This document shows, one piece after another, positions 36,043 to 52,581 of a DNA stretch of 64,000 nucleotides. The notes under the pieces were generated by a model. The model had not been told where the DNA came from. It made no database searches and saw nothing but the letters and a program-made list of their open reading frames with translations. Origin of the DNA: Castellaniella sp. MT123. Lineage in GTDB: Bacteria; Pseudomonadota; Gammaproteobacteria; Burkholderiales; Burkholderiaceae_B. The DNA lies in the NCBI RefSeq assembly GCF_039614765.1, contig NZ_CP154879.1, positions 2,294,001 through 2,358,000 of the forward strand, written 5' to 3'. Each line of letters starts with the position of its first letter. Within the stretch, counting starts at the first letter, position 1. The position numbers and the translations under genes were made by a program.

Positions 36043-36264
36043 TTGCAAAAACGCGCGACCTTCGTGTTTGCGGAACAAATGTTAACTATTGCCGAGCAGA
36101 TCGCGAGCGAGTTGGCAAATTCGATCTCATTCGAGAAATACGTGGATCAGTTCGAGACGACGCTGGAGCCCGCGGCCAGGCAGATGAGAGCGGCGGAATG
36201 GAAGGGACGAACTGCTATCGAAAAGCCACCAACCGAAATTGTTGACAGTACATGGCGAATATTC
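36043..36264 (+). pseudogene. Unrecognised gene cut by the left IS256 copy
   Basis: An open frame of 74 codons (MQKRATFVFAEQMLTIAEQI start, helical, no recognised domain) runs into the IS at 36264. After the right target duplication the same frame stays open from 37649 to a stop at 37751-37753, reconstructing a protein of about 110 residues. Codons upstream of 36043 in another frame (ATG 35997) suggest an additional frameshift. I do not recognise the product, and it may be a decayed fragment rather than a real gene. Confidence 0.4.
36257..36264. repeat. Target-site duplication, left copy (GAATATTC)
   Basis: GAATATTC at 36257-36264 directly precedes the left IS end and recurs at 37641-37648 directly after its right end. 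The 8-bp length is typical of IS256-family transposition. The target is a perfect palindrome. Confidence 0.95.
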
Positions 36265-37640
36265 GAGAGTGTCCGGAATTTTGTGGGCGAGGCATAACAT
36301 GAGAGAAAACGATCATGGATATGCCCGTGAAACACAAGAAACCATCCATCGCGGCGCAGGCGGCCGCCCGCGAGGCGCGGCTGCCCAAGCTGCCTGAGCA
36401 CCTACTGGACGGCCTGGTCGAAGGCCCGATGTCAGCCATGGAGGTCGAGGACCTGATCGATGCCTTCGGCCGCGCGGTCATCGAGCGGGCCATGGGTGCG
36501 GAGATGAACGTGCACCTGGGCTACCGCCCCGGTGAGGACAAGCCCGCCGCGCAGACCGATGAGCGCAACGGCGTGAGCACCAAGACGCTGCTGACCAAGC
36601 ACGGTTCGGTGCAGGTACAGCTGCCCCGAGACCGCGACGGCAGCTTCGAGCCGGTGCTCATCCCCAAGCATGAACGCCATTTCGCCGGGTTCGATGAGCG
36701 CATCATTGCCCTGTATGCCCGTGGCATGAGCGTGCGCGAGATCCAGGCTTTTCTCGCCGAGACCTATGGCACGAACGTTTCGCCCGAGCTCATCAGCGAG
36801 GTGACCAACGAGGTGATGGCCGAGACCGTCGCCTGGCAGAACCGCCCCTTGGAGCGCATGTACCCGGTCGTCTTATTTGACGCACTGCGGGTGAAGATCC
36901 GCACTGATGGTTTGGTGGTCAACAAGGCCGTCTACCTGGCCCTGGGCATCGACGCCAACGGGGAACGCGACGTGCTGGGGCTGTGGATCGAACAAACCGA
37001 GGGCTCAAAATTCTGGCTCAAGGTCTTCAATGAACTGAAAAACCGAGGCTGCCAGGACATCCTGATCGCCGTGGTGGATGGCTTAAAGGGCCTGCCCGAG
37101 GCCATTAACGCGGTCTTCCCGAAGACGACGGTGCAGACCTGCATCGTGCACCTGATGCGCAACAGCTTGGATTACGCGGGCTGGAAGGACCGTAAATTGG
37201 TCGCTGCCGCGCTCAAGCCCATCTATACCGCCGCCAACGAACAGCAGGCCCGAGAGGCCCTGCAGGCCTTCGCCGATGGCCCCTGGGGTACCCGCTACCC
37301 GACCATTGTGGCCGCCTGGGAACGGGCTTGGGAGCATGTGGTGCCGTTCTTCATCTTCCCGCCCGATATCCGGCGAGTGATCTACACCACCAACGCCATC
37401 GAGAACATGAACCGGCAGCTGCGTAAAATTATCAAGAACCGGGGCCAGTTCCCCAGCGATGAGGCGGCTGTGAAGCTGCTGTGGCTGGCGCTCAGAAACA
37501 TCCTGGCCAAGCCATCCCGATCCGTTCACACTTGGAAGGCGGCGATGAACCAGTTCGCCATTCTGTTCGGTGAACGGTTCACTGAGGCCAGGGATTAACC
37601 AATGTCAAATCGCCCCGCCCACAAAAAATCTGACACTCCC
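36265..37640 (+). mobile_element. IS256-family insertion sequence, copy 1
   Basis: A complete 1,376-base element. Its ends are imperfect inverted repeats: GAGAGTGTCCGGAATTTTGT at the left and, read inward from the right, GGGAGTGTCAGATTTTTTGT, both continuing with GGGCG. One transposase gene fills it and an 8-bp target duplication flanks it. It sits about 115 bases upstream of gntR, so outward transcription from its right end could alter expression of that regulator. It looks functional. Confidence 0.95.
36315..37598 (+). CDS. IS256-family transposase (copy 1)
   Basis: Mutator-type DDE transposase of 427 residues. The catalytic acids are the Asp of VVLFDALRVKIR, the Asp of IAVVDGLKGLPEA and the Glu of YTTNAIENMNRQLRK, with the conserved C/H spacer region TVQTCIVHLMRNS between them. 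It is full length without stops. It differs from the second copy at roughly two dozen residues (for example E20T, L23F, N152D), so the two elements are not very recent duplicates. Confidence 0.95.
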   Translation: MDMPVKHKKPSIAAQAAAREARLPKLPEHLLDGLVEGPMSAMEVEDLIDAFGRAVIERAMGAEMNVHLGYRPGEDKPAAQTDERNGVSTKTLLTKHGSVQVQLPRDRDGSFEPVLIPKHERHFAGFDERIIALYARGMSVREIQAFLAETYGTNVSPELISEVTNEVMAETVAWQNRPLERMYPVVLFDALRVKIRTDGLVVNKAVYLALGIDANGERDVLGLWIEQTEGSKFWLKVFNELKNRGCQDILIAVVDGLKGLPEAINAVFPKTTVQTCIVHLMRNSLDYAGWKDRKLVAAALKPIYTAANEQQAREALQAFADGPWGTRYPTIVAAWERAWEHVVPFFIFPPDIRRVIYTTNAIENMNRQLRKIIKNRGQFPSDEAAVKLLWLALRNILAKPSRSVHTWKAAMNQFAILFGERFTEARD

Positions 37641-37648
37641 GAATATTC
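37641..37648. repeat. Target-site duplication, right copy (GAATATTC)
   Basis: Exact repeat of 36257-36264 after the right IS end; confirms a simple insertion with no later rearrangement at this copy. Confidence 0.95.
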
Positions 37649-37667: not shown

Positions 37668-37754
37668 GGAATTCTTCAATTGCATATAAAGCTTTAAAAT
37701 ACCGTGGTCCGCCGGGAAATTCTCTGCGCCATATGGTTCTTCCATCCCGATAAC

Positions 37755-38456
37755 ATGTCGCCATCCAATACCGCTCTCCCCAGCAGCCCCCGGAACCGCG
37801 AGGGCAATGAAGACATCTACGAAAAAATCTATGTTGCCATCCTAGAGCATCGCCTCGTTCCAGGTACCAAGCTGGCCGAAGAACGCATGGCCGAGATCTT
37901 CAAGGTTAGCCGCGCGCGCATCCGGGAAGTTCTGGCGCGGCTCGCTTATGAACACATCGTGGAACTGATCCCAAACAAAGGCGCGTTCATTGCGAAACCC
38001 ACGGTCGAGCAGGCACGCGACATCTTCGAAGCGAGAAGGATCATCGAGCCGGCCATAATGCGCCGCCTGGCATCCAATATGGCAGCTAAGCAGGCGGCCG
38101 CGCTTCGGGAGCACATCGCTCAAGAGCGCCAGGCTCGGAAGAACGACGACAAGCGCGCGGTCATCAGGCTCTCAGGAGAGTTCCATAATCTATGCGCGGA
38201 TCTCGCCGGCAACGTAGCGCTTTCGAGAAGCCTGCGTGAACTGACGACACTGACCTGCTTGATTATCCTCGTCTACGACGCGCCCACCGCGCACAGTTGC
38301 CGGGAAGACGAGCACTCGATGATCGTCGAGGCGCTGATCGAAGGCAACGAAGCCCTGGCCTCGACACTGATGAGCGAGCATCTGGATCATATCGAAGGCA
38401 GCGTCAATCTCGATGTGTCGCTCAAGGAAGTGGACCTAGCCGACATTTTCACCTGA
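37755..38456 (+). CDS. GntR-family (FCD) transcription regulator
   Basis: A 233-residue regulator with an N-terminal winged helix (about residues 17-80: LEHRLVPGTKLAEERMAEIF and VSRARIREVLARL) and a C-terminal FCD ligand domain (about 90-220) with the metal/ligand histidines in SGEFHNL and SEHLDHIEG. ATG at 37755 is chosen; the frame upstream is non-conserved. It converges on the catabolic gene set at 38522-47923 and is its likely repressor, with the substrate or an intermediate as inducer. Confidence 0.88.
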   Translation: MSPSNTALPSSPRNREGNEDIYEKIYVAILEHRLVPGTKLAEERMAEIFKVSRARIREVLARLAYEHIVELIPNKGAFIAKPTVEQARDIFEARRIIEPAIMRRLASNMAAKQAAALREHIAQERQARKNDDKRAVIRLSGEFHNLCADLAGNVALSRSLRELTTLTCLIILVYDAPTAHSCREDEHSMIVEALIEGNEALASTLMSEHLDHIEGSVNLDVSLKEVDLADIFT

Positions 38457-38521
38457 ATCCAGGTCTCGAGCTGCCTTCGAACAACCCTGTTCGAAGGCAG
38501 CTCCGTCACAATGTCATGCCA

Positions 38522-39295
38522 TCACAGCATGACGTCACCGCCATTGGGCGACAGAGTCTGCCCGGCATAGAAGGCGCCAGCGCCAGACGCGAGAAGCAAC
38601 GCGGTCGGAGCAATCTCGTCGACGTGTCCGAACCGTCCCACAGGCAGTTGAGCCTTCTTGACCTGCAGCCATTCCTCGCTATGATTACGCAGCAATTCCG
38701 TGTCCACCGGCCCCGGCGCGATGCTGTTTATCATCACGTGGTGCGGCGCTCCTTCGTAGGCCAAGGCACGAGTGAAGCCGATGACGCCCGCTTTGGCTGC
38801 ACAATAGTGAGCCAGTCCGGGCGCGCCCTTATAAGCCAGTTGGGATGCGATGTTGATGATGCGCCCCCACTTGCGCGCCACCATGGGTGCGAAGAATGCG
38901 CGGCTGACCAGCATCGTGCCGCGCAGGTTCACACCCACTGTGCGGTCCCAATCGCTGTCGTCCGTCAATTCGAAAGCACGATCTCCACCACCGACGCCCG
39001 CCGAATTCACGACAATGTCCACCCGGCCCAATTTCTGAGTGGCCCATGCCGCAAAGTCCTTCACCGCCGCAGGCGACGACACATCACATTCCGTGGCGTG
39101 CAGGATGAGCCCTCTTGCTGCCATCCTGTCCCGCAGCGCATCGGCATTCACGGCATCCCCGAAATGGCAGATCGCGACTTCAGCGCCATGCTCCAGGAAC
39201 AGCTCGGCAATGGCGCCGCCGATGCCTCGACTGCCGCCAGTAATCAGCGCCTTGCGGCCAGTCAGATCAAATGTTTTGTGCATGATTTCGTCCAT
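38522..39295 (-). CDS. Short-chain dehydrogenase/reductase
   Basis: Classical SDR of 257 residues. The cofactor motif is ITGGSRGIGGAIAE, followed by NSAGVGGG, the catalytic Ser in NIASQLAYKG and Tyr/Lys in YCAAKAGV. The start at 39295 shares a base with the stop of the upstream hydrolase gene (TAATG), so it is translated in the same unit. It probably oxidises or reduces a hydroxyl/keto intermediate of the pathway; the substrate is unknown. Confidence 0.88.
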   Translation of the reverse strand: MDEIMHKTFDLTGRKALITGGSRGIGGAIAELFLEHGAEVAICHFGDAVNADALRDRMAARGLILHATECDVSSPAAVKDFAAWATQKLGRVDIVVNSAGVGGGDRAFELTDDSDWDRTVGVNLRGTMLVSRAFFAPMVARKWGRIINIASQLAYKGAPGLAHYCAAKAGVIGFTRALAYEGAPHHVMINSIAPGPVDTELLRNHSEEWLQVKKAQLPVGRFGHVDEIAPTALLLASGAGAFYAGQTLSPNGGDVML

Positions 39296-40200
39296 TAATT
39301 CGTCGGTGCGGGGTGAACCTGCTGCCAATGCTTGGCAATGTCGAGCCGTCGGGTGATCCACACATCAGGAAACTGGGCGACATAGTCTAAGAATCGCTCG
39401 AGTGCCGCAGCCCGCGCCGGATGGCCCACGAGCCGCATGTGCAGACCCACGGACATCATCTTGGGATGCTGACGGCCTTCCTTATAGAGCATGTCAAAGG
39501 CATCTTTGAGAAAGCCGAACCACTGCTCGGACGTGCTCACACCCGCAGCGTATTGCCCATCGTTGTTGGTCAGCGAATATGGCACCACCAGATGCGGCTT
39601 GCCCTCGACGCGCGTCCAGAACGGCAGTTCCTCGCCGTAGTAGTCCGAGTCGTACAGGAAACCACCCTCTTCCACCAGTAGCCGACGCGTATTGACGCTC
39701 GGCGAATACCGACAGTACCAGCCTTGAGGACGATGGCCGACTATCTTCTCCAGTGAAGCAACGGCATGGTGGATGTGCTCCCGTTCCTCATCCTCGGACA
39801 ATTGATAGTGCTGAATCCAGCGCCATCCATGCGAACAGACGTCGAAGCCTGATTCCCTGATGAAATCGCAGGCTTCAGGATTACGCTCAAGTGCCAGCGC
39901 GCAACCGAAGATCGTCGCAGGCAGCGAACGCTCCTGCAGCAGACGCATCACCCGCCAGAACCCCACGCGACTGCCGTATTCGAACAGCCCTTCCGCCGCC
40001 AGATCACGCCCGGCCACACCAGCCAGGCCATGGCTTTCGGTGAACCAGGTCTCAGTCATACCCTCGCCGTCCTGGAAGGAGGGCTCGGAGCCTTCCTCAT
40101 AATTGAGCACGAAGTTCAGAGCCAGACGCGCGCCACCCGGCCACTTCGGATCCGGAGGGTTGCGGCCATAGCCCACAAAATCGCGTTGCAGATGATCCAT
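39295..40200 (-). CDS. Polysaccharide-deacetylase-fold hydrolase (PuuE allantoinase / imidase-like)
   Basis: A 301-residue NodB-fold protein of the PuuE type, with the opening GYGRNPPDPKWPGGARLALN, FVLNYEEGSE, SRVGFWRVMRLL, CSHGWRWI and a C-terminal histidine in SVGLHMRLVGHP. PuuE members hydrolyse allantoin, and related enzymes hydrolyse cyclic imides; others deacetylate peptidoglycan. Next to a hydantoinase-like gene, cleavage of a cyclic amide or imide is the most likely role. Confidence 0.82.
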   Translation of the reverse strand: MDHLQRDFVGYGRNPPDPKWPGGARLALNFVLNYEEGSEPSFQDGEGMTETWFTESHGLAGVAGRDLAAEGLFEYGSRVGFWRVMRLLQERSLPATIFGCALALERNPEACDFIRESGFDVCSHGWRWIQHYQLSEDEEREHIHHAVASLEKIVGHRPQGWYCRYSPSVNTRRLLVEEGGFLYDSDYYGEELPFWTRVEGKPHLVVPYSLTNNDGQYAAGVSTSEQWFGFLKDAFDMLYKEGRQHPKMMSVGLHMRLVGHPARAAALERFLDYVAQFPDVWITRRLDIAKHWQQVHPAPTN

Positions 40201-40248
40201 GTTTGAGAGACCTCCATGAATGGGGAAAATTGCGCCTGGACCTGGGTA

Positions 40249-41196
40249 TCAGGCCCCAGCCGCCTGCCTTGCACGTGACTCGATCCACGCGGCATATGCC
40301 CGGATACCCAGCTCGAGCGGAACGCGGGGTTCGTAGCCAAAATCCCGTTGGGCCGCCTGGATGCTGAATTGCCCCTGAAATTCGTCCATAGGGTCCGGAC
40401 CGTTCTGCAGCTCGATATCGGCCTCGGGGAACACTCGTCGGACCAATGCCGCCAGCTCGCCGAGGGTCACACGCCCATTGCCCGTGACGTTATAGGTCGT
40501 CCTTGGTAGCGCCACCGCATCCAGCGCCCTCAGCAGGCCGTCCGCCGCATCATCGACATGAATGAATTGCCGAGGGAAATCTTGACCGAACGACATTCTC
40601 GTCGGCCGCTTGGCCTGCGCATCCTCGATCATGGCCCTGATCACACAGTCCGTGGTCCGACCGGGCCCGTACACCCACGACAAGCGGATATTTACAGCCG
40701 ACAGGCCGTACTGCTCCGCATATGCTGTCGTGATGTATTCGGAAGCCACTTTGCTAGCGCCGTACAGACTGCCCGGCCGCAACAGACTGTCCTCTACGAT
40801 AGGAACTCCCGACTGTGTGACACCATAGGCGCTAGTGGACGAGCAGTAGACGAAACGGCGGGCCTGATGCACACGCGCCAACTCCAGTACGTTAGCAGTA
40901 CCCACGATATTGATCTGCACCATGGCATACGGCGTATCGCGTGCAACCATCGGTCCCGAAAACGCACCGCAATGAATCACCGAATCGATGCCGTCGCGCG
41001 CCAACGCGTGCAGACCATGGATATCGCCTAGGTCGCACCCATTGATGGCGATGCCGTCTTCGATGATGGAAGTCACTCGATCCACGGCGATGAAGGCACG
41101 ATCCTGCGCCACAAGGCGGCGAACCAGAGTACGACCGACCAGGCCTGCCGCTCCAGTCACCAGCACAGGTTTCGTAGATTGTTGAGTCATCGTCAT
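40249..41196 (-). CDS. NAD(P)-dependent epimerase/dehydratase (extended SDR)
   Basis: A 315-residue Rossmann protein. The GAAGLVGRTLVRRLVAQ cofactor loop and the YGASKVASEYI active site (Tyr-x3-Lys) are intact, as is the SSTSAYG segment with catalytic Ser. It overlaps the ABC ATPase gene by four bases. Epimerases of this type act on sugars or hydroxy-acids; why one belongs with an importer and amidohydrolases is unclear and is informative about the substrate. Confidence 0.85.
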   Translation of the reverse strand: MTMTQQSTKPVLVTGAAGLVGRTLVRRLVAQDRAFIAVDRVTSIIEDGIAINGCDLGDIHGLHALARDGIDSVIHCGAFSGPMVARDTPYAMVQINIVGTANVLELARVHQARRFVYCSSTSAYGVTQSGVPIVEDSLLRPGSLYGASKVASEYITTAYAEQYGLSAVNIRLSWVYGPGRTTDCVIRAMIEDAQAKRPTRMSFGQDFPRQFIHVDDAADGLLRALDAVALPRTTYNVTGNGRVTLGELAALVRRVFPEADIELQNGPDPMDEFQGQFSIQAAQRDFGYEPRVPLELGIRAYAAWIESRARQAAGA

Positions 41197-42860
41197 ACCG
41201 CCTTGGCCACCGCCATAATTTCGGAATGCGTCAGTTCGCGCGCCTCGATCGGAAGCTCGGCATCCAGGAGCTTGCGCGTGTAGGCGTCCTGAGGATGTTC
41301 GAAAATCTGCTCCGTCGGGCCCTGTTCGATCAGCTTGCCATGACGCATCACCGCCACATAATGCGCAAGCGAACGGACGGAATTCAGGTCATGCGTGATG
41401 AACAACGCGGAAAGCCCCATACGTTTCTGCAGATCGCGCACGAGGTCGATGATCTGTGCACGCACCCGAATATCCAGGGCCGTCGTGGGTTCATCAAAGA
41501 TCACAAAGTCCGGATTCACGGCCAGAGCACGCGCCACCCCGACGCGCTTCTGCTCGCCCGCCGTCAGTTCATGCGGATAAAGATTAGCCTTCGCCCTATC
41601 GACGCCGACCAGATCCAACAATTCCAGCACGCGGACCTCGCGCGCGGCACGCGACAGAGGCTCACCCAATTTCAGCGGCTCGGCCACCAATTCCCGCACG
41701 CGCCATCTCGGGTTCAAGGCGACGTAAGGTTCTTGAAACACCATCTGCATCCTCCGGCGGACGGCCCGGAATTCCTTGTCCGACATCGTCAATGTTTCGT
41801 GGCCATCAAAACGGATTGAGCCGGAGTCGGATTGCAGCAAGCGGACCAGGCACTGGCCCATGGTCGTTTTGCCCGAACCGCTTTCGCCGACCAGGGCCAG
41901 AGTCTCGCCGCGACGAATCGAGAGCGACACATGATCGACGGCCCGCACGACATCGGCAGTGCCACCAACATGGAAAGTCTTGACCAGATCGGTGACCTCG
42001 AGCAGCGGTGGCCTGGCCGCCTCGCCAGCGGCCTCCGGATCCTGGACCATGGGCAGGGGCCGCACTTTCGCAGCCTCAAGTAGTTCTCGGCTGTAGAGGT
42101 GCCGTGGCCCATCCGTCAGAAACGAGCGTACGCTTTCGAGCTCCAGCAGCTCTCCCGATTTCATAATGCCAACGCGGTCACAATACGCGGCGACCATGCC
42201 CAGATCGTGCGTGATGAGCACGACGGCCAGACCGAGCTCACGGCCCTTCTGCACAAGCAGGTCCAGCACCTGCAATTGGATCGTGGCGTCCAGCCCGAGC
42301 GTCGCATCGTCTGCGAGCAATACCTTAGGCTGAGCGATCAGCGCCATGGCGATCACGACCCGCTGCGCCATCCCGCCAGATAACTCGTGCGGATAGGCGT
42401 GCGCACGCCGCTCCGGATTGACGATCCCCACCTGCTCGAAGAGCGCGATGGCATTCTGCCAGGCCTGCCTTTTTCCAATGCCGCGGTGGGTGCGCAATAC
42501 CCGTGCAATCTGCTCGCCCACCTTGACGACCGGATCCAGCAAGGACTTCGCATTCGTTCCGATCAGAGCAACCTCGCCACCGCGGAACCCTCGTTTCTGC
42601 GCCTCGGTCATTCCGGCCACTGATTGCCCTCTGACCAGCACATCGCCATCCACAATCCGGCCGTCACCTGGCAGCATGTCGATGATAGCGCGGGCAAGCA
42701 ACGACTTGCCCGCGCCTGTCTCACCCACAATACCCAGGATTTCACCTTGACCCAAAGTGAAGCTGACGCTATTCAGTGCGAGCGGTGCCGACTGATCTGA
42801 AGAAAATCCGACGGAAAGATTTCGAACTTCCAGCAATGCATCTGCCAACTGTGCCATCAT
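41193..42860 (-). CDS. Fused dual-domain ABC transporter ATPase (Dpp/Opp type)
   Basis: A 555-residue protein with two nucleotide-binding domains, about 1-265 and 285-555. Domain 1 has Walker A GETGAGKS and signature LSGGMAQR but lacks the Q-loop glutamine (ALIGTNAKSLLDP), and its Walker B reads LLADDATLGLD with Asp in place of the catalytic Glu. Domain 2 has Walker A GESGSGKTT, Q-loop VFQEP and Walker B FDEPTTALD but an altered signature LTAGEQKR. It energises the two permeases next to it. Confidence 0.93.
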   Translation of the reverse strand: MMAQLADALLEVRNLSVGFSSDQSAPLALNSVSFTLGQGEILGIVGETGAGKSLLARAIIDMLPGDGRIVDGDVLVRGQSVAGMTEAQKRGFRGGEVALIGTNAKSLLDPVVKVGEQIARVLRTHRGIGKRQAWQNAIALFEQVGIVNPERRAHAYPHELSGGMAQRVVIAMALIAQPKVLLADDATLGLDATIQLQVLDLLVQKGRELGLAVVLITHDLGMVAAYCDRVGIMKSGELLELESVRSFLTDGPRHLYSRELLEAAKVRPLPMVQDPEAAGEAARPPLLEVTDLVKTFHVGGTADVVRAVDHVSLSIRRGETLALVGESGSGKTTMGQCLVRLLQSDSGSIRFDGHETLTMSDKEFRAVRRRMQMVFQEPYVALNPRWRVRELVAEPLKLGEPLSRAAREVRVLELLDLVGVDRAKANLYPHELTAGEQKRVGVARALAVNPDFVIFDEPTTALDIRVRAQIIDLVRDLQKRMGLSALFITHDLNSVRSLAHYVAVMRHGKLIEQGPTEQIFEHPQDAYTRKLLDAELPIEARELTHSEIMAVAKAV

Positions 42861-43699
42861 GCGCTCCTCGCCTGGGGATCAAACATCTGCTTCGCGGCAT
42901 CCCCTAGTAGCGCAAAGGTCAGTACGGAAAAGACGATGGCCAGGCCAGGAAAGAGCGAGACCCACCACACGCCGAGGATCATCTGCTGCGCCCCATTGCT
43001 AACCATCAGTCCCCACTCGGGCGTGGGCATCCGAACCCCGGCGCCTACGAAAGAAAGCCCAGCAGTCAGCAGAATGGCCATACCGATGCTGATGGATATC
43101 TGCACAATAGCCGGCGTCAGGGCATTGGGCAGGATATGCTGGAACATGATGGCGCCATCGGTCGCACCACTGCAGCGTGCTGCAGCAATGAACGGGCGGT
43201 CGCGCAATGACAGCACTTCGGCACGAATCAGCCGTGCAAATACCGGGGCGAACAGCACTGCCAGCACGATGGCTACGTTCCAGATCTCCTGACCCATGAC
43301 GGATACCAGCACCATACCCAGCACAAACACGGGAAAGGACTGGATGAAGTCGAAGATGCGCATCGCGAATGAACTGAGCCAGCCTTTGTAATAGCCAATG
43401 GCCAGGCCGATCGGCACGCCGATGACGAAAGCGATGGCAACCGCCGTGACGCTGATCAGCAGGTTGATGCGGGTGGCGAAGATGACGCGGGAAAAGATAT
43501 CCATGCCCGACACATCAGTGCCGAACAGATGTTGCAGTGATGGTTCTTTCAATGCATTGAGCGGATCCGCATCGACCGGCGAGTATGGAGCGATCCAGGG
43601 TGCGAACACGATGGCCAGGGCCTGTACGGCCAGTAGTACAAGGCCGATCGTCAATGTCAGCCTGCCGTTCGGGCGGCGCCGTAAGGACATTTTTTTCAT
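42857..43699 (-). CDS. ABC permease, DppC/OppC type
   Basis: Inner-membrane permease of 280 residues. After a first helix (about 15-37) it has the binding-protein-dependent transport domain with FGTDVSGMDIFSRVIFATR and the EAA coupling loop AARCSGATDGAIMFQHILPN. It overlaps its neighbours by four bases on both sides, indicating tight co-translation. Confidence 0.92.
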   Translation of the reverse strand: MKKMSLRRRPNGRLTLTIGLVLLAVQALAIVFAPWIAPYSPVDADPLNALKEPSLQHLFGTDVSGMDIFSRVIFATRINLLISVTAVAIAFVIGVPIGLAIGYYKGWLSSFAMRIFDFIQSFPVFVLGMVLVSVMGQEIWNVAIVLAVLFAPVFARLIRAEVLSLRDRPFIAAARCSGATDGAIMFQHILPNALTPAIVQISISIGMAILLTAGLSFVGAGVRMPTPEWGLMVSNGAQQMILGVWWVSLFPGLAIVFSVLTFALLGDAAKQMFDPQARSA

Positions 43700-44736
43700 A
43701 CTTCGATCCTCGGGTCCGCGATGCCGTAGAGCACGTCCACCACGGTATAAACAATCAGAATGAACGCTGCTGCCACCAGCACGAAGCCCTGCAGTGCTGG
43801 GTAGTCACTGTTCATCACGGCCGAAACGGCATACTGTCCCAGGCCACCCCACGCAAAGATGGTCTCGACCAGGACGGCTGCGCCCAGCAGGAAGCCGAAG
43901 AGGAAACCCACCATCGTGATGATCGGCGGCAGGCTGTTGCGCAACGAGCTCTTGATGAGCTGCCTTTCGGACAGGCCGCTGGCGCGCGCATGGCGGATGT
44001 ATTCGCTGCGATAGTTGTCGGCGAAGACCATCTGGGTCATTTTCATCAAGGCACCAGCATTCACGATGGCGAGCGTCAGCACCGGCAGACATAGGCGACC
44101 GACGGCCGACATGAAGGCATCGGTATCCCCCGCGAGTAGCGTATCGATGGTCAGGAACCCGGTGATGGCCGGGGGCGCCGACATGATCGGATCCAGGCGC
44201 CCGAACGGGGCCGGCGCAATGCCCGCGACGTAGAAAAGAAAATAGATCAGCAACAGACCGACCCAGAAATCAGGCACGGCACCAGCAGCCAGGCCATAGA
44301 CCTTGCTGATACGGTTTACGATGCCCTTGGGCCGCACGACGGACACGATCGCCAGGGAAATGCTGATGAGGATGGTCAGCAACATGGCATAAGTGATCAG
44401 TTCCAGGGTCGCAGGCACACGGTCGAGCAGGTCCACCAAAACTGGATTTGCGGTGAACATTGAAGTGCCCAGGTCACCGTGGATCACGGTCGATAGATAG
44501 CTGGTGAACTGGGACCACAGGCTGCCATTCAGGCCCAGGCGTTCCCGCAGGTTCGCAATCTGTTCCGGAGTGGCCATATTGCCCAGCATGAGTAGTGCGG
44601 GGTCACCCGGCAGCAAGCGAATCAGCAAAAATGTCGCCAGCAACACGCCAAACATCTGCGGTATCAGGATACTGAACCTTGCAAAAATGATCCGCAGCGG
44701 CCGTGGCAGCGATCTCAACGGCAGATTTTGCTTCAT
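43696..44736 (-). CDS. ABC permease, DppB/OppB type
   Basis: Inner-membrane permease of 346 residues with six helices. It has the family features LIRLLPGDPALLMLG after the first helix and the coupling loop IRHARASGLSERQLIKSSLR. ATG at 44736 has GGAA eight bases upstream; an in-frame start at 44763 is possible. It forms the channel with the DppC-type gene product. Confidence 0.92.
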   Translation of the reverse strand: MKQNLPLRSLPRPLRIIFARFSILIPQMFGVLLATFLLIRLLPGDPALLMLGNMATPEQIANLRERLGLNGSLWSQFTSYLSTVIHGDLGTSMFTANPVLVDLLDRVPATLELITYAMLLTILISISLAIVSVVRPKGIVNRISKVYGLAAGAVPDFWVGLLLIYFLFYVAGIAPAPFGRLDPIMSAPPAITGFLTIDTLLAGDTDAFMSAVGRLCLPVLTLAIVNAGALMKMTQMVFADNYRSEYIRHARASGLSERQLIKSSLRNSLPPIITMVGFLFGFLLGAAVLVETIFAWGGLGQYAVSAVMNSDYPALQGFVLVAAAFILIVYTVVDVLYGIADPRIEV

Positions 44737-44805
44737 AGCACTTTCCTTGTTCTTGCCTTGCAAGGCAAGGAGGCGCCGTTTACGACCCTCCCTGCCATTG
44801 GGAAA

Positions 44806-46419
44806 TCACTTCTTGGAGAAGTCGTACCACGTGTTGCTGTTCGGCGTGTACCAGCTGAAGCCGGTCACATTGGCTCGCGTGGCAAGCTGGTAGCCAGGAT
44901 TCATCAGGAACACCCACGGCGCCTGTTCGACCACGATCTGCTGGACACGCTTCATGTTGGCTTCACGCTTCGCTTCGTCGGTGCTGGTCAGCCCTTCATT
45001 GATCAACTGATCGACTTCGGCATTCTTGAATTTCGGATAGTTGATCAGGGAAGCGCTGTTGAGCCAGAGATTGGCGACATAAGCAGCATCCGGCACGATC
45101 GCCATGTCCCGGAAAAAGTACATGGGAATAGTGCCTTTGGAATACCGCTCGACGAGCGTCGAGGCAGGCAGCTTGATCAGTTCGACGTCGACCCCGGCGC
45201 GAGCGAAGGCCGTCTTCAGGATCACGGCGATCTCTTCCTCGATCTGATCTCCTGTGCGGTAGCCCAATTGGGTCTTGAATCCCTCCTCATGACCTGCTTC
45301 CTTCAGCAACGCCTTGGCTTTATCGACGTCCTGCGTGTACTTGAAGTATTCGTCAGCATAGGCCGGATAGATCTCCGAGATCGGGCTCTTCGTCGCACGT
45401 GCCTTGCCGTAGTACACGGCCTTCAGAATATCCTCGCGCGGCACCAGGTAGTTCAAGGCCTGGCGCACATTCTGGTTATCGAAGGGTGGCGTGGTGTTGT
45501 TCATCTCCACGCGATGAATGTAGTTACCGAATACCTGCCACACTTTGATCTGGGGATTCTTCTCCAGGGCGGACAGTTCCCGGGGCGAAAGCCATTCGGC
45601 TACATCGACTGCGCCCGCCTGCAATGCTGCCAACCGGTTGGCCGACGTCGGCATCTCACGGAAGATGACTTTCTTGATCTGCGGCGCACCACGGTAATAG
45701 TTTGGATTGGCTTCGTAGATGACCTCCTGGCCCGACTGGAATTTCGCCACCTGGTATGGCGCAAACGACGCCGAATGGGTGGACAGCCAGCGCGAAGCCC
45801 AGGGATCGTCCGCCGTCACATGCTTCTTCGCGGTCACCGCATCCAGGATGCCTAGGTCATTGTTGACCCAGATGCGCTCGATCAACGGAGAGGGTCGGGG
45901 CAGCGTGACCTTCACCGTCATGCCGTCGACCTTCTGGAATGCCGAGAAATCGGTGATGCCCATGATCTGGCCCATGTACCAGCGGAAATTGGCATTCTTG
46001 TTCCAGCCACGCTCAAACGTCCACATCACGTCATCGGCGGTCATCTCGTTACCATCGGCGCTCTTGACGCCCTTGCGCAGGAAGAAAGTGATCGACGTCT
46101 TGTCTGCGGAGACTTCCCACTGCTCGGCCAGAGCACCGACGAGCTTGTCAAAGTTCTCTACCTTGACGCCATTCTGCATCTTGGTGTCATAGGCCAACAG
46201 ACGCTCGTAGGTGTTGCGCTTGGATTCGTGCGAGGCCTCTGTGGGTGGATATTCCTGGTCAAGCGATTCCGGCGTGCGAGGTCCTGCCACGACCAGAACC
46301 GATTTTGCATCCTGCGCATATGCGGAGGGCACCACAAACATACCCAGCAACGATGCGGTGATGATGGCTCTCGCCATAGACTCCATAAGCGATTGTGCAG
46401 CTTCCTTCTTGATATTCAT
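44806..46419 (-). CDS. Periplasmic substrate-binding protein (DppA/OppA family)
   Basis: A 537-residue solute receptor of the SBP_bac_5 family. The signal peptide spans residues 1-36 (ending SAYA-QDA). It is followed by the mature start SVLVVAGPRTPESLDQEYPP and the family segments FFLRKGVKSADGNEMTADDV and QNVRQALNYLVPREDILKAV. Members bind peptides but also many other small compounds. It is the first transporter gene after the hydantoinase. Confidence 0.93.
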   Translation of the reverse strand: MNIKKEAAQSLMESMARAIITASLLGMFVVPSAYAQDAKSVLVVAGPRTPESLDQEYPPTEASHESKRNTYERLLAYDTKMQNGVKVENFDKLVGALAEQWEVSADKTSITFFLRKGVKSADGNEMTADDVMWTFERGWNKNANFRWYMGQIMGITDFSAFQKVDGMTVKVTLPRPSPLIERIWVNNDLGILDAVTAKKHVTADDPWASRWLSTHSASFAPYQVAKFQSGQEVIYEANPNYYRGAPQIKKVIFREMPTSANRLAALQAGAVDVAEWLSPRELSALEKNPQIKVWQVFGNYIHRVEMNNTTPPFDNQNVRQALNYLVPREDILKAVYYGKARATKSPISEIYPAYADEYFKYTQDVDKAKALLKEAGHEEGFKTQLGYRTGDQIEEEIAVILKTAFARAGVDVELIKLPASTLVERYSKGTIPMYFFRDMAIVPDAAYVANLWLNSASLINYPKFKNAEVDQLINEGLTSTDEAKREANMKRVQQIVVEQAPWVFLMNPGYQLATRANVTGFSWYTPNSNTWYDFSKK

Positions 46420-46495
46420 GGCTGATTTTCCAAGGTGGTGGAGAAAAGTGAAGCTTCAAAACAGAGTGACAAACAAAACCAGAAAACGCTCGAGA

Positions 46496-47923
46496 CTAGG
46501 AAGCACGGACGTCGGGCAGGATCGAAGGCCGACCCGCCACAATGAACTTCCCTCGATGCCTGGAACCGACATAGGACTCACCGTCCCACAGCACTTCGCC
46601 ACGCAGCAGCGTGCAGGCTGGCCAGGCGCCCAGCCGCATACCTTCATAAGGGGTGTAGTCGACCGCGTGATGCAGCGACCCATTGCGGATGGTGACTTCG
46701 CGTTCATCCCAAATCACCAGATCGGCATCGGCACCGATGCAGATGGCCCCCTTGCGTGGATGCAAGCCGTAAGTCTTGGCTGGACCCGTCGCCGTCAGCT
46801 CGACGAACTTTTCGAGACTGATGCGCCCCTTGAGGACCCCTTCCGAATACAGCAGCGGCATGCGCGTTTCCAACCCGGGGATTCCGTTGGGAATATGCCG
46901 GAACGACACTTCCTTGCCCTGCGGATGCTTGCCCTCGTCGCCTTCGAAATTGAAGGGCGCATGATCGGAAGAAAATACGGTGAACAACCCGTCACGCAGA
47001 CCATTCCAGATGAATTCCTGATTTGCTTTGTCGCGCGGGGGCGGGCTGCACACACACTTGGCACCGGTATAACTGTCATCGATTCCCAGGTCCTCTGCCG
47101 TCAGGAAAAGATATTGAGGACAGGTCTCGGCGAAGATGTTCAAGCCATGCGCACGGCCCCAGCGTATCTGCTCGATCGCCTCGCGGCCCGAGACATGGAC
47201 GATGAGAATCGGTACAGCCACCAATTCGGCCAATGCAATAGCGCGATGGGTGGCTTCACGCTCCACCAGCATCGGACGGGAATAGGCGTGAAAACGCGGA
47301 GCATGGCGCCCCATTGACTCAAGCCGCTGCGTCAGCCATTCGATGCAGTCCGAATTCTCCGCATGAAGCATAGCGATCGCACCATGACGCTTCGCCACAT
47401 CCAGAACATCCAGGATCTGGCCATCGTCGAGCTTGAGATCGTCGTATGTCATGTACGCCTTGAATGACGTGTATCCTTTGCCGATCAGCTCCGGCAGCTC
47501 GACCTTCAGAACCTCGGGCGTCGGATCGCTGACGATGAGGTGAAATGCATAATCGATATGCGACACGCCATCCGCACGCCGGTGGTAGTCCTCAACAGCC
47601 GCACGCAGACTATGCCCCTTCTGCTGGGCGGCAAAGGGGATGACCGTCGTCGTTCCACCGCAAGCAGCGGAAATCGTGCCACTATTGAAATCGTCAGCCA
47701 TCTTCACGGGCGACGACGACGGCTGGTCCAGGTGACAATGCGCATCAATACCACCCGGCGTGACGACACGGCCACGCGCATCGATCTCCCGGGCGCCTTC
47801 TGGCAGGCCTGACCCCAACTGGACGATCCGGCTATCACGAATGCCGATATCCGTGGTAAAGACATCGGAAGCCGTGGCCGCACGGGCATTGCGGACCACC
47901 AAATCAAAACAGGATGTGCTCAT
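46496..47923 (-). CDS. Dihydropyrimidinase/hydantoinase-like amidohydrolase
   Basis: Binuclear-metal cyclic amidohydrolase of 475 residues. Metal-binding features are visible: PGGIDAHCHLDQ (His-x-His), the carbamylated Lys in KGYTSFKAYMTY, His in AMLHAENSD, His in LIVHVSG, and the catalytic Asp in FSSDHAPFN. The family hydrolyses the ring amide of hydantoins, dihydropyrimidines and related compounds. It is the first gene of the minus-strand unit and probably opens the imported ring. Confidence 0.92.
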   Translation of the reverse strand: MSTSCFDLVVRNARAATASDVFTTDIGIRDSRIVQLGSGLPEGAREIDARGRVVTPGGIDAHCHLDQPSSSPVKMADDFNSGTISAACGGTTTVIPFAAQQKGHSLRAAVEDYHRRADGVSHIDYAFHLIVSDPTPEVLKVELPELIGKGYTSFKAYMTYDDLKLDDGQILDVLDVAKRHGAIAMLHAENSDCIEWLTQRLESMGRHAPRFHAYSRPMLVEREATHRAIALAELVAVPILIVHVSGREAIEQIRWGRAHGLNIFAETCPQYLFLTAEDLGIDDSYTGAKCVCSPPPRDKANQEFIWNGLRDGLFTVFSSDHAPFNFEGDEGKHPQGKEVSFRHIPNGIPGLETRMPLLYSEGVLKGRISLEKFVELTATGPAKTYGLHPRKGAICIGADADLVIWDEREVTIRNGSLHHAVDYTPYEGMRLGAWPACTLLRGEVLWDGESYVGSRHRGKFIVAGRPSILPDVRAS

Positions 47924-48052: not shown

Positions 48053-48073
48053 TTGTAGACAATAATGTGGACA
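48053..48073. promoter_or_regulatory. Tandem candidate GntR operators upstream of hydantoinase
   Basis: TTGTAGACAA (48053-48062) is a near-perfect palindrome, and TGTGGACA (48066-48073) follows 13 bases later. Both fit the GT-n2-AC GntR pattern. They lie 130-150 bases upstream of the hydantoinase start, beyond a possible -35 TTGACC (minus strand, 48004-47999) of its promoter. Confidence 0.5.
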
Positions 48074-48558: not shown

Positions 48559-50262
48559 CTACGTGCTGAGACTGTGCACACACGAGAGGATCGCTAAAGA
48601 GAGGGTCCGCCGACTGGCGGGAATGCCCATCCCCCGTTTATGGGGTAGAGCCGGGAATTTCGATTTAATTGGTGCGCCAGGTACGGCAAGGGTGGGCACT
48701 TTCAGCCCACCGCCCGCATTCAGTTCCTCGATGACACCCTCCAGGTCGCCAGTCCTGCCGGTGATCTTGATGTCACCGGCCTTGACCCGGATCTCTTTCA
48801 CCAGCAGGCGCAGCAACTGCTTGCCATAGCCCTTTTCGCGATCCATCAGCATGGCCCGCATACGGTCGCAGGCGAAGGCTACCTGCGTGGGGGCTACATG
48901 TCGGGCCGACGGCGTTTCACGCCGCACCTCTGCCATCTGAGCCAGGATACGCTCCCGCTCGTCCTTGAGCCGGTTGATGCGGGCCTGGAACGTCGAGTCG
49001 AGGGTCACAATCCCCTTCTCAATGGCACCGTACAGGTTGTTGAGCCCATCATCTGCAGCCTTCAGCGCCTTTTGCAGATGCTCCATGGTGTCATTGGTGG
49101 CCGCTGCGCGCTTACCCTGCTCAGCCAGCCAGGCCTTGAGAATGACGGTAACCCGCTCAGGTGTAAGGACCTTGCCGATCAGGTGGTTCAGGATCAGTTC
49201 GTCCGTATCCCTGACCGGCAGATTGGGGGTATCGCAGGCGTTCGCCGAGAGGGAAACCTTGTGGCTGCATTTGTAGTACCTGTACCGCCCTCCCTTGCCG
49301 CTCGCCTGGGTCATGGATGTACTGCAGTGGTCACATTTTATGAGACCTGCCAGCAAGGTCACGCTGGTCGCATGCTGGGCCTTGCCGCCTTGCTTGTTAG
49401 GGTCTCGCGACTCCCGCACTCGGCGCACAGCCTCAAAGGTCTCGTCATCAACGATGGCCGGAATCGTGGTACGGATCCACTCGCTTTCAGGGCGCACCTG
49501 TCCCGTACGAGAATTCCGCATATTGAAGCAATACTCGCCGCGATAGGTTGTATCGGCCAGCACGGCATTGACCTTCTGCACCAGCCATGGCTTTCCGCGC
49601 ATGAGAGTGCCGGACTGGTTCAGCCGGCCCGCGATCGCCTTCAAGCCCAGCGCGCACCCGTTTTCGCCATGTAGGTAAAGGTCATAGATCCGTCTGACGA
49701 CCAAAGCTTCACGTTCATCGATTGCCAGCCGCTTGCGCTTCTTGCCCTTGTGGCCGACCACATCAGTCTCTACGGCCTCATAGCCAAAGGGCGCACACGA
49801 TCCGTTGAAGTAGCCCCTGCGGGCGTTCTCCTTCATCGCCCGGCTGGTGTGCTTGGCATTCTCCAGCGAACTGTACTCATCCATCATCGAAATGAGGTTG
49901 TCCATCATGAAGCCCATCGGATCATCCGATGTGGGCTGCGTCATGGACAGAATGCGCGTGCCGTTGCGCTTGAGCCGGTGGGTGTACAGCGCCGAGTCCA
50001 TCGTGTTGCGGAAGATCCGCGACCGGGCAAAGACGAGGATCGCATCGTACCGCCGAGACTTGCAGGAAGCGTCCTCGATCATCTGCTGGAAGACCGGGCG
50101 CCTATCGTCCATGGCAGAGTCGCCGGGCTCAACATACTCATGCAAGACCGTCATACCGTTTTGATGGCAGTAGGCCCGCATTTGGTTCAGCTGGTCTGGG
50201 ATCGAGAGGTCGGCTTCGGCTTGCCTCGTGGTGGAAACGCGGGCATACAGGGCTACATCCAT
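48559..50262 (-). CDS. Large serine recombinase
   Basis: A 567-residue site-specific recombinase. The N-terminal resolvase domain contains the catalytic Ser in YARVSTTRQ and the Arg-containing VFARSRIFRNT. It is followed by the recombinase domain (GSCAPFGYEAVE, with NAVLADTTYRGEYCF), a zinc ribbon (IKCDHCSTSM and YYKCSHK), and a long coiled coil (about 390-480). Such enzymes integrate or excise phages and islands. Its ATG overlaps the stop of the 67-codon gene upstream. The last 30 residues are non-conserved. Confidence 0.92.
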   Translation of the reverse strand: MDVALYARVSTTRQAEADLSIPDQLNQMRAYCHQNGMTVLHEYVEPGDSAMDDRRPVFQQMIEDASCKSRRYDAILVFARSRIFRNTMDSALYTHRLKRNGTRILSMTQPTSDDPMGFMMDNLISMMDEYSSLENAKHTSRAMKENARRGYFNGSCAPFGYEAVETDVVGHKGKKRKRLAIDEREALVVRRIYDLYLHGENGCALGLKAIAGRLNQSGTLMRGKPWLVQKVNAVLADTTYRGEYCFNMRNSRTGQVRPESEWIRTTIPAIVDDETFEAVRRVRESRDPNKQGGKAQHATSVTLLAGLIKCDHCSTSMTQASGKGGRYRYYKCSHKVSLSANACDTPNLPVRDTDELILNHLIGKVLTPERVTVILKAWLAEQGKRAAATNDTMEHLQKALKAADDGLNNLYGAIEKGIVTLDSTFQARINRLKDERERILAQMAEVRRETPSARHVAPTQVAFACDRMRAMLMDREKGYGKQLLRLLVKEIRVKAGDIKITGRTGDLEGVIEELNAGGGLKVPTLAVPGAPIKSKFPALPHKRGMGIPASRRTLSLAILSCVHSLST

Positions 50263-50465
50263 CAGTTGATCTCCCACTGAGCAAACGGCTGGACACCCAG
50301 CAGGTCATCCAGCATCGAGAAGGCCAGCTCCATTTCTTCCGGCCCCGGCTCGACTGCCGGTTCGCGGTAGGCCATGGCCAGGATTGCATTGGGTACCTTA
50401 TCAGAAGGTGCAGTGAAAGTCTGAGTTGAGAATTGTGTGGTCGAGGACATCGACGGGCTCCACAA
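50262..50465 (-). CDS. Small protein translationally coupled to the recombinase
   Basis: A 67-residue acidic protein (with EPAVEPGPEEMELAFSMLDD) without a recognised domain. Its TGA shares a base with the recombinase ATG, so the two are produced together. It is a candidate accessory or directionality factor for the recombinase, purely from its position. Confidence 0.5.
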   Translation of the reverse strand: MWSPSMSSTTQFSTQTFTAPSDKVPNAILAMAYREPAVEPGPEEMELAFSMLDDLLGVQPFAQWEIN

Positions 50466-51189: not shown

Positions 51190-51197
51190 GGGAACCC
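51190..51197. repeat. Target-site duplication of IS copy 2, left (GGGAACCC)
   Basis: GGGAACCC at 51190-51197 abuts the IS end and recurs at 52574-52581. It differs from the duplication around copy 1, so the two copies inserted independently. Confidence 0.95.
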
Positions 51198-52573
51198 GGG
51201 AGTGTCAGATTTTTTGTGGGCGGGGCGGTTTGACATCGTTTAATCCCTCGCCTCGGTGAACCGTTCACCGAACAGGATGGCGAACTGATTCATGGCTGCT
51301 TTCCACGTATGAACCGATCGTGACGGCTTGGCCAGCACGTTTCGCAGCGCCAGCCATAGGAGTTTGACGGCCGCCTCGTCGCTGGGGAATTGGCCCCGGT
51401 TCTTGATGATTTTACGCAGCTGCCGATTCATGTTCTCGATGGCGTTCGTGGTATAGATCACGCGCCGGATATCGGGTGGGAAGATGAAGAACGGCACCAC
51501 ATGTTCCCAGGCCCGCTCCCAGGCGGCCACGATCGTCGGATATTTCGTGCCCCAAGGGCCAGCCGCGAAGGCGGCCAGCGCCTCTCTGGCCTGTTGCTCA
51601 TTGGCGGCGGCATAGATGGGCTTGAGGGCGGCGGCGACCAACTTACGGTCCTTCCAGCCGGCGTAATCCAGGCTGTTGCGCATCAGATGCACGATGCAGG
51701 TCTGCACCGTCGTTTTCGGGAAGACCACGTTGATGGCCTCGGGCAGGCCCTTTAAACCATCGACCACGGCAATCAGAATGTCCTGGCAGCCCCGGTTCTT
51801 GAGCTCGTTGAAGACCTTGAGCCAGAACTTCGAACCTTCGGTCTGCTCAATCCACAGCCCCAGCACGTCACGCTCCCCGTTAGCGTCGATCCCCAGGGCC
51901 AGGTAGACCGCCTTGTTGACCACCAGCCCGTCGGTGCGGATCTTCACGCGCAGGGCATCGAAGAACACGACCGGGTACATGCGCTCCAGGGGCCGATTCT
52001 GCCAGGCCACCGTCTCGGTCATGACCTCGTCAGTGACCTCGCTGATGAGCTCGGGCGAGACATCCGTGCCATAGGTCTCAGCCAGGAATGCCTGGATCTC
52101 GCGCACGCTCATGCCTCGGGCGTACAGGGCGATGATGCGTTCATCGAACCCGGCGAAATGGCGCTCATGCTTGGGGATCAAGACCGGCTCGAAGGTACCG
52201 TCCCGGTCGCGGGGCAACTGAACACGCATCGAGCCGTGTTTGGTCAACAGCGTCTTGGCGCTCACGCCGTTGCGTTCGTCGGCTTGTTGGGCCGGCTTGT
52301 CTTCGCCGGCACGGTAGCCAAGGTGGGCGTTCATCTCGCCAGCCATGGCCCGCTCGATCACCGCCTTGCCAAAGGCATCAATCAGATCCTCGACCTCCAT
52401 GGCCGACATCGGACCTTCGACCAGGCCGTCCAGCAAATGCTCAGGCAGCTTCGGAAATCGGGCCGTACGGGCGGCCGCCTGGGCCGCAATAGATGGCTTC
52501 TTGTGTTTCACGGGCATATCCATGATCGTTTTCTCTCATGTTATGCCTCGCCCACAAAATTCTGGACACTCTC
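51198..52573 (-). mobile_element. IS256-family insertion sequence, copy 2 (inverted)
   Basis: Again exactly 1,376 bases with the same terminal inverted repeats as copy 1, in opposite orientation, carrying one transposase. It is inserted inside the McrB-N/HNH nuclease gene. The pair of inverted copies makes inversion of the 13.6 kb between them possible by recombination. Confidence 0.95.
51240..52523 (-). CDS. IS256-family transposase (copy 2)
   Basis: Full-length 427-residue Mutator-type transposase, colinear with copy 1. Its catalytic Asp, Asp and Glu lie in VVFFDALRVKIR, IAVVDGLKGLPEA and TTNAIENMNRQLR. The N-terminal third carries most of the differences from copy 1 (for example T20, F23, K53, Q79), while the catalytic core is nearly identical. 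Confidence 0.95.
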   Translation of the reverse strand: MDMPVKHKKPSIAAQAAARTARFPKLPEHLLDGLVEGPMSAMEVEDLIDAFGKAVIERAMAGEMNAHLGYRAGEDKPAQQADERNGVSAKTLLTKHGSMRVQLPRDRDGTFEPVLIPKHERHFAGFDERIIALYARGMSVREIQAFLAETYGTDVSPELISEVTDEVMTETVAWQNRPLERMYPVVFFDALRVKIRTDGLVVNKAVYLALGIDANGERDVLGLWIEQTEGSKFWLKVFNELKNRGCQDILIAVVDGLKGLPEAINVVFPKTTVQTCIVHLMRNSLDYAGWKDRKLVAAALKPIYAAANEQQAREALAAFAAGPWGTKYPTIVAAWERAWEHVVPFFIFPPDIRRVIYTTNAIENMNRQLRKIIKNRGQFPSDEAAVKLLWLALRNVLAKPSRSVHTWKAAMNQFAILFGERFTEARD

Positions 52574-52581
52574 GGGAACCC
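52574..52581. repeat. Target-site duplication of IS copy 2, right (GGGAACCC)
   Basis: Second copy of the 8-bp duplication. On the minus strand it supplies the Gly-Phe-Pro codons that rejoin the split nuclease gene. Confidence 0.95.

What the first reader, a model, noticed from the sequence alone, without database searches (positions are those of the whole stretch)
37755..47923. Uncharacterised GntR-controlled uptake and catabolic cluster for a cyclic amide or imide
One minus-strand unit couples a hydantoinase-like amidohydrolase, a full Dpp/Opp-type ABC importer, an extended-SDR epimerase, a PuuE/imidase-like hydrolase and a classical SDR, with four-base overlaps through most of it. Two mechanistically different ring-opening hydrolases in one unit suggest sequential cleavage of a cyclic amide/imide after uptake, followed by redox/epimerase steps. 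No characterised pathway I know has this exact set.
Basis: partly seen in the sequence, partly recalled or inferred. Interest (0 to 1): 0.7.

Follow-up and report, generated by a model that had tools for sequence, protein, structure and literature searches.

The report
Mobile import-and-ring-opening catabolic gene cluster
A genomic island carries a set of genes that very probably lets the bacterium import a small nitrogen-containing ring compound and open it; the same set is found in unrelated bacteria, its substrate is unknown, and one enzyme usually labelled an allantoinase belongs to a separate, uncharacterised subfamily.

Summary
The gene set is real: GntR/FCD regulator, hydantoinase (HydA), Dpp-type importer, extended SDR (Epi), PuuE-like hydrolase and classical SDR. 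All nine genes cluster, with small rearrangements, in 9 of 11 close loci (Variovorax, Pseudomonas, Paraburkholderia, Caballeronia, Trinickia), and a seven-gene core in eight further loci, so it is not chance assembly. Here it lies in an 18.6-kb island ending at a tRNA-Arg gene; a same-species assembly lacks it. The two flanking IS256 copies inserted independently. The host has its own allantoinase with allantoicase, ureidoglycolate lyase and another hydantoinase. The PuuE-like enzyme is not a canonical allantoinase: it scores below the curated cut-off and has CRY where allantoicase-linked PuuE has TGR. None of the CRY-type loci examined has allantoicase or UraD nearby (0 of 22; 0 of 26 in a second sample with short flanks), but 9 of 22 and 9 of 26 have ureidoglycolate lyase. 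Best reading: uptake of a hydroxylated cyclic ureide or imide, dehydrogenation by Epi/SDR, ring opening by HydA and PuuE-CRY. Substrate, order and activities are inferred. New variant of a known kind; moderate interest.

The parts
37755..38456 (+). GntR/FCD transcriptional regulator, convergent with the operon
   Evidence: PF00392 + PF07729; GntR homologue in 11 of 11 close loci
38522..39295 (-). classical SDR dehydrogenase (SDR)
   Evidence: PF13561/PF00106; ATG overlaps PuuE stop
39295..40200 (-). PuuE-like hydrolase of the CRY subfamily (NodB fold)
   Evidence: TIGR03212 389.5 bits, below cut-off 424.6; CRY motif at residues 163-165, 21 clade-specific columns
40249..41196 (-). extended SDR (Epi), clade motif HCGAxSGPMV, YxxxK present
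   Evidence: PF01370; alignment A1; best NCBIfam 100 bits against cut-off 365.1
41193..42860 (-). ABC importer ATPase with two fused ATPase domains
   Evidence: PF00005, two stretches
42857..43699 (-). ABC importer permease, DppC type
   Evidence: PF00528, PF12911
43696..44763 (-). ABC importer permease, DppB type (alternative ATG start 44736)
   Evidence: PF00528, PF19300
44806..46419 (-). family 5 solute-binding protein
   Evidence: PF00496, 285.9 bits
46496..47923 (-). hydantoinase/dihydropyrimidinase-type amidohydrolase (HydA)
   Evidence: PRK13404 761.5 bits (cut-off 647), TIGR02033 513.3 (cut-off 393.25); best PDB match 1nfg D-hydantoinase
48053..48062 (.). candidate GntR operator TTGTAGACAA upstream of hydA
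   Evidence: TTGTNNACAA also in 4 of the 11 other upstream regions examined; in the window alone no better than chance (1 seen, 0.30 expected)
36264..37641 (+). IS256-family element with its own target repeat CGAATATTC; not part of the pathway
   Evidence: IS256 name from plasmid annotation, Transposase_mut, repeats
51197..52574 (-). second IS256-family element, 87% identical, with its own target repeat GGGAACCC
48559..50277 (-). large serine recombinase of the island
   Evidence: PF00239, PF07508, PF13408
36095..54661 (.). genomic island carrying the cluster, absent from a same-species assembly
   Evidence: L130 aligns to window 32241-36094 and 54662-61703 at 98-99% with 104 bp between; that assembly has no close Epi anywhere
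54662..54736 (-). tRNA-Arg(CCG) whose 3' end is the right island boundary

Best explanation
A horizontally acquired, probably GntR-regulated operon for uptake and catabolism of a small, probably hydroxylated, cyclic ureide or imide. The Dpp-type importer brings the compound in (inferred from family). Epi and SDR oxidise hydroxyl or ring carbinolamine groups (inferred, by analogy with the fungal dehydrogenase HxnW that precedes the imide hydrolase HxnM). HydA, with its expected metal ligands kept, opens a five- or six-membered cyclic amide/imide (supported by family). PuuE-CRY opens a hydantoin- or imide-like ring that is not allantoin (supported by sequence and context). Where an AllA-type ureidoglycolate lyase is the neighbour, the product is probably ureidoglycolate or a close analogue, cleaved to glyoxylate and urea; my specific guess for the PuuE-CRY substrate is a 5-hydroxyhydantoin-like ring (about 0.1-0.15). 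In this window AllA is absent from the unit, and the chromosomal AllA could serve.
For: Families and scores. All nine genes clustered in 9 of 11 close loci and the seven-gene core in L050, L051, L053, L055, L060, L076, L077, L078. GntR homologue in 11 of 11 close loci, in differing orientations. The host already has allantoinase+allantoicase, AllA+UraD, and another hydantoinase beside a family-3 binding protein. CRY versus TGR split: allantoicase/UraD near 0 of 22 CRY and 21 of 27 TGR loci; AllA within 140 bp of 9 of 22 CRY loci; second sample 0 of 26, 3 of 4, and 9 of 26. Accessory genes in some relatives fit ring catabolism: asparaginase with CE4 hydrolase (L050, L053, L076), D-2-hydroxyacid dehydrogenases (L048, L055, L121), and, in loci with only Epi or only PuuE of this unit, a HyuC-type amidase (L057), StyA-type monooxygenase (L081; also L060), Mo hydroxylase and 2OG oxygenases (L121). 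Fungal HxnW-HxnM precedent (PMC9304392, passages). A bacterial dihydropyrimidinase hydrolyses dihydrouracil, phthalimide and 5-propylhydantoin but not allantoin (PMC4437985, passages).
Against: No activity, growth or expression data. Five core loci (L050, L051, L053, L060, L076) show no PuuE-CRY in the held stretch, and several CRY loci show no HydA, so 'sequential' action is not supported as a rule. More than half of CRY loci (13 of 22; 17 of 26 with short flanks) have no AllA nearby. Dpp-type importers often carry peptides, opines or oligosaccharides (family knowledge). Partner enzymes vary so much between lineages that one common substrate is unlikely.
Confidence: 0.55

Rival explanations
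1. Ordinary ureide or pyrimidine salvage: HydA is a dihydropyrimidinase and the PuuE-like protein an allantoinase, giving the host a second copy of known pathways.
For: PuuE-like homologues are annotated 'allantoinase PuuE'; HydA passes the dihydropyrimidinase models.
Against: PuuE-CRY is below the allantoinase cut-off with the conserved motif changed; not beside allantoicase or UraD in any of the 48 CRY-like loci examined; the unit has no dihydropyrimidine dehydrogenase, ureidopropionase or allantoicase among its genes; host copies already exist.
Confidence: 0.12
2. The unit degrades a lactone- or lactam-bearing sugar-like or amino acid conjugate: Epi and SDR act on a polyol or uronate part, HydA opens a lactam, and PuuE-CRY removes an N-acyl group as its NodB-fold relatives do.
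For: Extended-SDR fold shared with sugar-nucleotide enzymes; NodB-fold relatives are deacetylases; binding proteins of this family can carry opines (agrocinopine SBPs).
Against: HydA passes the D-hydantoinase/dihydropyrimidinase models; PuuE-CRY is much closer to PuuE allantoinases (about 50%) than to deacetylases and lacks the CE4 HxxxH pair; AllA neighbours point to ureido chemistry.
Confidence: 0.15
3. Xenobiotic-degradation cassette (hydantoin or imide drugs and pesticides) recently assembled and spread on mobile elements.
For: Mobile context here and plasmid copies; two carriers come from contaminated soils (record fields). Paenarthrobacter YJN-5, which has the Epi-SDR pair, is recalled as an iprodione degrader; only lists iprodione papers that mention it.
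Against: Divergence among the clustered copies (about 45-92% identity) is too large for recent assembly.
Confidence: 0.1

Closest known systems
Aspergillus nidulans hxn nicotinate pathway, steps HxnW (SDR) and HxnM (cyclic imide hydrolase) (PMC9304392, passages)
   Same: An SDR oxidises a ring hydroxyl to an imide, which an imide hydrolase opens; both in one regulon.
   Different: The steps described in the passages seen include no hydantoinase, extended SDR or ABC importer; fungal; HxnM was not compared with the window protein here, so homology is not tested.
Purine catabolism module PuuE-UraD-allantoicase-AllA
   Same: PuuE-like protein, about 50% identity; AllA neighbour in 9 of 22 CRY loci.
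   Different: CRY instead of TGR motif, below the TIGR03212 cut-off, no allantoicase or UraD nearby; extra HydA, Epi, SDR and importer.
Hydantoin utilisation (D-hydantoinase with N-carbamoylase and racemase; gene set recalled)
   Same: HydA family and catalytic residues.
   Different: No carbamoylase or racemase in the unit; Epi, SDR and PuuE-CRY instead.
Cyclic imide utilisation (imidase plus half-amidase, recalled)
   Same: Relatives L050, L053 and L076 pair a CE4-type hydrolase with an asparaginase-family protein.
   Different: The window unit has no half-amidase; its PuuE-like enzyme is of a different subfamily.

Membership tests
D-hydantoinase/dihydropyrimidinase (HydA) | Score above curated models | tested here: met
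   TIGR02033 513.3 over 393.25; PRK13404 761.5 over 647
D-hydantoinase/dihydropyrimidinase (HydA) | Binuclear metal ligands HxH, carbamylated Lys, two His, Asp (ligand identity recalled) | tested here: met
   H62, H64, K155, H187, H243, D320 align with 1nfg
D-hydantoinase/dihydropyrimidinase (HydA) | Hydrolysis of hydantoin or dihydropyrimidine | not testable with these tools
   needs assay
PuuE allantoinase | Score above TIGR03212 cut-off 424.6 | tested here: not met
   389.5; the 6 CRY relatives scanned score 347-406; the one TGR protein scanned 521.9
PuuE allantoinase | GWYTGR motif of allantoicase-linked PuuE | tested here: not met
   GWYCRY at residues 160-165; 21 alignment columns differ consistently
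PuuE allantoinase | Context with allantoicase or UraD | tested here: not met
   0 of 22 CRY loci, 21 of 27 TGR loci; probe identities confirmed by Pfam
Dpp/Opp-type ABC importer | Family 5 SBP, two BPD permeases, two ATPase domains | tested here: met
Sugar-nucleotide epimerase/dehydratase (Epi) | Score above a curated epimerase or dehydratase model | tested here: not met
   best TIGR01181 100 bits against 365.1; none of the 25 listed reaches its cut-off
IS256 composite transposon | Target repeat shared by the outer ends of the two IS copies | tested here: not met
   each IS has its own repeat on both sides
tRNA-associated genomic island | Segment at a tRNA end absent from a relative, with recombinase | tested here: met
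tRNA-associated genomic island | Direct-repeat attachment sites | tested here: inconclusive
   no exact repeat of 9 bp or more between the two 260-bp junction stretches

The most novel reading that the evidence does not exclude
PuuE-CRY is a new ring hydrolase acting on 5-hydroxyhydantoin-like rings (oxidation products of pyrimidines or of hydantoins), whose product is ureidoglycolate, passed directly to AllA; the operon would then be an undescribed route for salvaging oxidised cyclic ureides that bypasses allantoate, with Epi and SDR supplying the oxidised ring.
Probability: 0.12. Interest if true: 0.75.

Novelty: new variant of a known kind. Interest (0 to 1): 0.42.

Why it matters
It marks a recurring, mobile catabolic module with no described pathway that I could find, and suggests that proteins annotated 'allantoinase PuuE' that carry the CRY motif are unlikely to be allantoinases. 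A one-motif rule makes that possible misannotation testable, and the conserved Epi-SDR-HydA core is a concrete target for finding a new nitrogen-heterocycle pathway.

Tried and rejected
Composite transposon: rejected, because each IS256 copy has its own target repeat and they are only 87% identical.

Recent loss of AllA in the window: the 48-bp Epi/PuuE gap showed no AllA remnant by eye, and the Pseudomonas and Burkholderiales relatives have no AllA hit in the held stretch either; not concluded.

Substrate from neighbours: relatives carry very different accessory genes (asparaginase + CE4 + CobW; StyA with flavin reductase; nucleoside hydrolase; Mo hydroxylase and 2OG oxygenases; FAH family), so no single substrate emerged.

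Riboflavin/lumichrome degradation was considered from a listing and dropped after passages: a hypothetical 25-gene Nocardioides operon found by looking for a P450, amidases and a catechol dioxygenase (PMC12746152). Iprodione degradation was considered; the Paenarthrobacter stretch has only GntR, Epi, SDR and an amidohydrolase below the hydantoinase cut-offs.

Literature: nine searches of an open-licence library; in the listings shown I saw no paper describing this gene set. I read passages of six papers and no whole paper. Structure prediction and fold search were not used: about 50% identity to solved PuuE and clear hydantoinase matches already give the folds.

Rows dropped before counting: two copies of the window itself (L006, L059) and seven distant proteins without the motif (second ones in L037 and L039; L050, L053, L061, L062, L076). 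In one search the comparison used 15 CRY sequences (L027, L035, L037, L039, L055 left out; L077, L078 not in that file) against 20 TGR sequences (L036, L038, L040-L043, L057 left out). In one search each locus was classed by its best copy. Against a tidy picture: 6 of 27 TGR loci showed neither allantoicase nor UraD (short flanks in five), and in the tree L055 fell outside the CRY group on a long branch although it has the motif. One search repeated the order and is not counted separately.
Full report
Observation. The window holds the genes as described: a GntR/FCD regulator at 37755-38456 (+) and, on the minus strand in transcription order, HydA, SBP, PermB, PermC, double-ABC ATPase, Epi, PuuE-like and SDR. 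Four-base overlaps occur at 3 of 7 junctions, not most; PuuE and SDR share one base (TAATG); three junctions have gaps of 42-76 bp. The regulator is convergent with the operon at its distal end; linkage is nevertheless kept in all 11 close loci, where it is divergent upstream (V. paradoxus L044; Pseudomonas L026, L027) or follows the unit on the same strand (L028-L035).

Catalytic state. HydA passes the dihydropyrimidinase models (PRK13404 761.5 over 647; TIGR02033 513.3 over 393.25) and aligns with D-hydantoinase 1nfg with the expected metal ligands kept (H62, H64, K155, H187, H243, D320; ligand identity recalled). Epi has the Rossmann motif, YxxxK and a clade motif HCGAxSGPMV, and is far below the named epimerase/dehydratase cut-offs listed. 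The PuuE-like protein matches solved PuuE structures; as in the host's own PuuE, the second histidine of the CE4 HxxxH pair (motif recalled) is Trp, in line with the metal-independent PuuE type (PMC10967932 and PMC3084791, passages).

Is the unit real? A named-genome scan gave 18 loci with PuuE relatives, of which ten, L026-L035, carry the neighbouring genes; with V. paradoxus VAI-C (L044) that makes 11 close loci. Homologues of all nine genes cluster in 9 of 11: L026, L027 (Pseudomonas), L028-L032, L034 (Paraburkholderia, Trinickia, Caballeronia) and L044; L033 and L035 keep only ATPase to GntR. Gene order varies a little: HydA is last in Pseudomonas, SDR precedes PuuE in the Burkholderiaceae loci, and V. 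paradoxus has AllA between Epi and PuuE. L026 and L027 have identical PuuE proteins, so they are hardly independent. The seven-gene core SBP-PermB-PermC-ATPase-Epi-SDR-HydA recurs in L050, L051, L053, L055, L060, L076, L077 and L078; of these L055, L077 and L078 also carry PuuE-CRY with AllA, while L050, L053 and L076 have a CE4 hydrolase with asparaginase. The Epi clade is rare: at E<=1e-60, 9 of 399 genomes of the order, the eight others at only 213-261 bits against 516 for the window; 3 of 398 of the phylum sample including this one; at E<=1e-90, 9 of 297 in one other order. Clustering kept at identities of about 45-92% argues for selection on the set, not chance.

Mobility. A same-species assembly (unnamed G1395, 89% complete) aligns to window 32241-36094 and 54662-61703 at 98-99% with only 104 bp between, and its best Epi match anywhere is a distant 115 bits against 516. 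The 18.6-kb stretch 36095-54661 is therefore an island whose right end is the 3' end of tRNA-Arg(CCG). It carries a large serine recombinase. GC of the cluster is 0.587 against about 0.64 in the flanks. No exact attachment repeat of 9 bp or more was found in the junction stretches compared. The two IS256 copies are 87% identical, each with its own target repeat (CGAATATTC; GGGAACCC), so they inserted separately and do not form a composite transposon. The best PuuE hits in the eight same-genus genomes are 48-51% identical.

Host background. The host has an ordinary PuuE with allantoicase (L072), AllA with UraD (L074) and another hydantoinase beside a family-3 binding protein (L073) (probe identities by Pfam). 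The cluster's HydA and PuuE-like proteins are thus additional copies.

PuuE-CRY. Comparing 15 cluster-type with 20 canonical sequences, 21 alignment columns are consistently different, including GWYTGR to GWYCRY with an inserted Pro. In the tree the 27 TGR proteins form one group (100/98), apart from 19 CRY/WRY proteins (94/97, next fork 85/90); L055, on a long branch, falls outside the latter although it has the motif. Context splits cleanly: of 27 TGR loci, 21 have allantoicase or UraD in the held flank; of 22 CRY/WRY loci, none do within 8 kb, and 9 have AllA within 140 bp. In a second sample (134 of 385 genomes of one class matched; only the 30 loci returned, with flanks of about 1.5 kb, were examined) 26 CRY-like loci (22 CRY, 2 CRH, 1 CRT, 1 SRY by best copy) gave 0 with allantoicase/UraD and 9 with AllA, and 4 TGR loci gave 3 with allantoicase/UraD. 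That sample was ranked by similarity to the window protein, so it is rich in CRY and poor in TGR. The window protein scores 389.5 and six CRY relatives 347-406 against the allantoinase cut-off of 424.6; one canonical protein scores 521.9. I conclude that it is not a member of the allantoinase equivalog, although it may well work like a ring-opening PuuE.

Mechanism. By family and context the unit imports a small nitrogen heterocycle, oxidises it with two dehydrogenases and opens rings with two hydrolases. The clearest precedent for dehydrogenation to an imide followed by an imide hydrolase is HxnW-HxnM of Aspergillus nidulans (PMC9304392, passages). Dihydropyrimidinases also open imides: the P. 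aeruginosa enzyme hydrolyses dihydrouracil, phthalimide and 5-propylhydantoin but not allantoin (PMC4437985, passages). The CRY-AllA pairing without allantoicase suggests ring opening directly to ureidoglycolate or an analogue; D-2-hydroxyacid dehydrogenase relatives near PuuE-CRY in L048, L055 and L121 would fit glyoxylate or 2-oxoacid reduction. Shown: gene content, clustering elsewhere, island, subfamily split. Inferred: substrate class, step order, role of Epi, regulation. TTGTNNACAA occurs in 5 of 12 upstream regions examined, the window's hydA region included, but in the window alone is no better than chance.

Verdict. The cluster is genuine, conserved, mobile and, as far as my nine searches of an open library show, undescribed. 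It combines known enzyme families in a new set; the sharpest new point is the PuuE-CRY subfamily.

Noticed in passing
window 50646-51236 (-): An ORF with an MrcB-like N-terminal fragment and an HNH domain begins inside the right IS256 end, so it looks like the remnant of a restriction-type gene cut by the insertion.
   Followed up: partly
window 53469-54542 (+): A 357-aa ORF between the right IS256 copy and tRNA-Arg, inside the island; no Pfam match.
   Followed up: partly
   Followed up: no
L035 (Candidatus Burkholderia humilis) 7040-11652: The cluster looks reduced: no hits for HydA, SBP and permeases, GntR match in two pieces, motif WRY.
   Followed up: partly
L026 13266-14015: The Pseudomonas version ends with an FAH-family gene overlapping hydA by 4 bp; no hit in the other close loci except the near-identical L027.
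   Followed up: partly
   Followed up: partly
L050 15976-18301, L053 14146-16306, L076 14538-16871: A CE4 hydrolase (HxxxH kept in L050), a small unknown protein and a CobW GTPase travel together with asparaginase beside the core unit, perhaps a metal-dependent imidase with its chaperone.
   Followed up: partly
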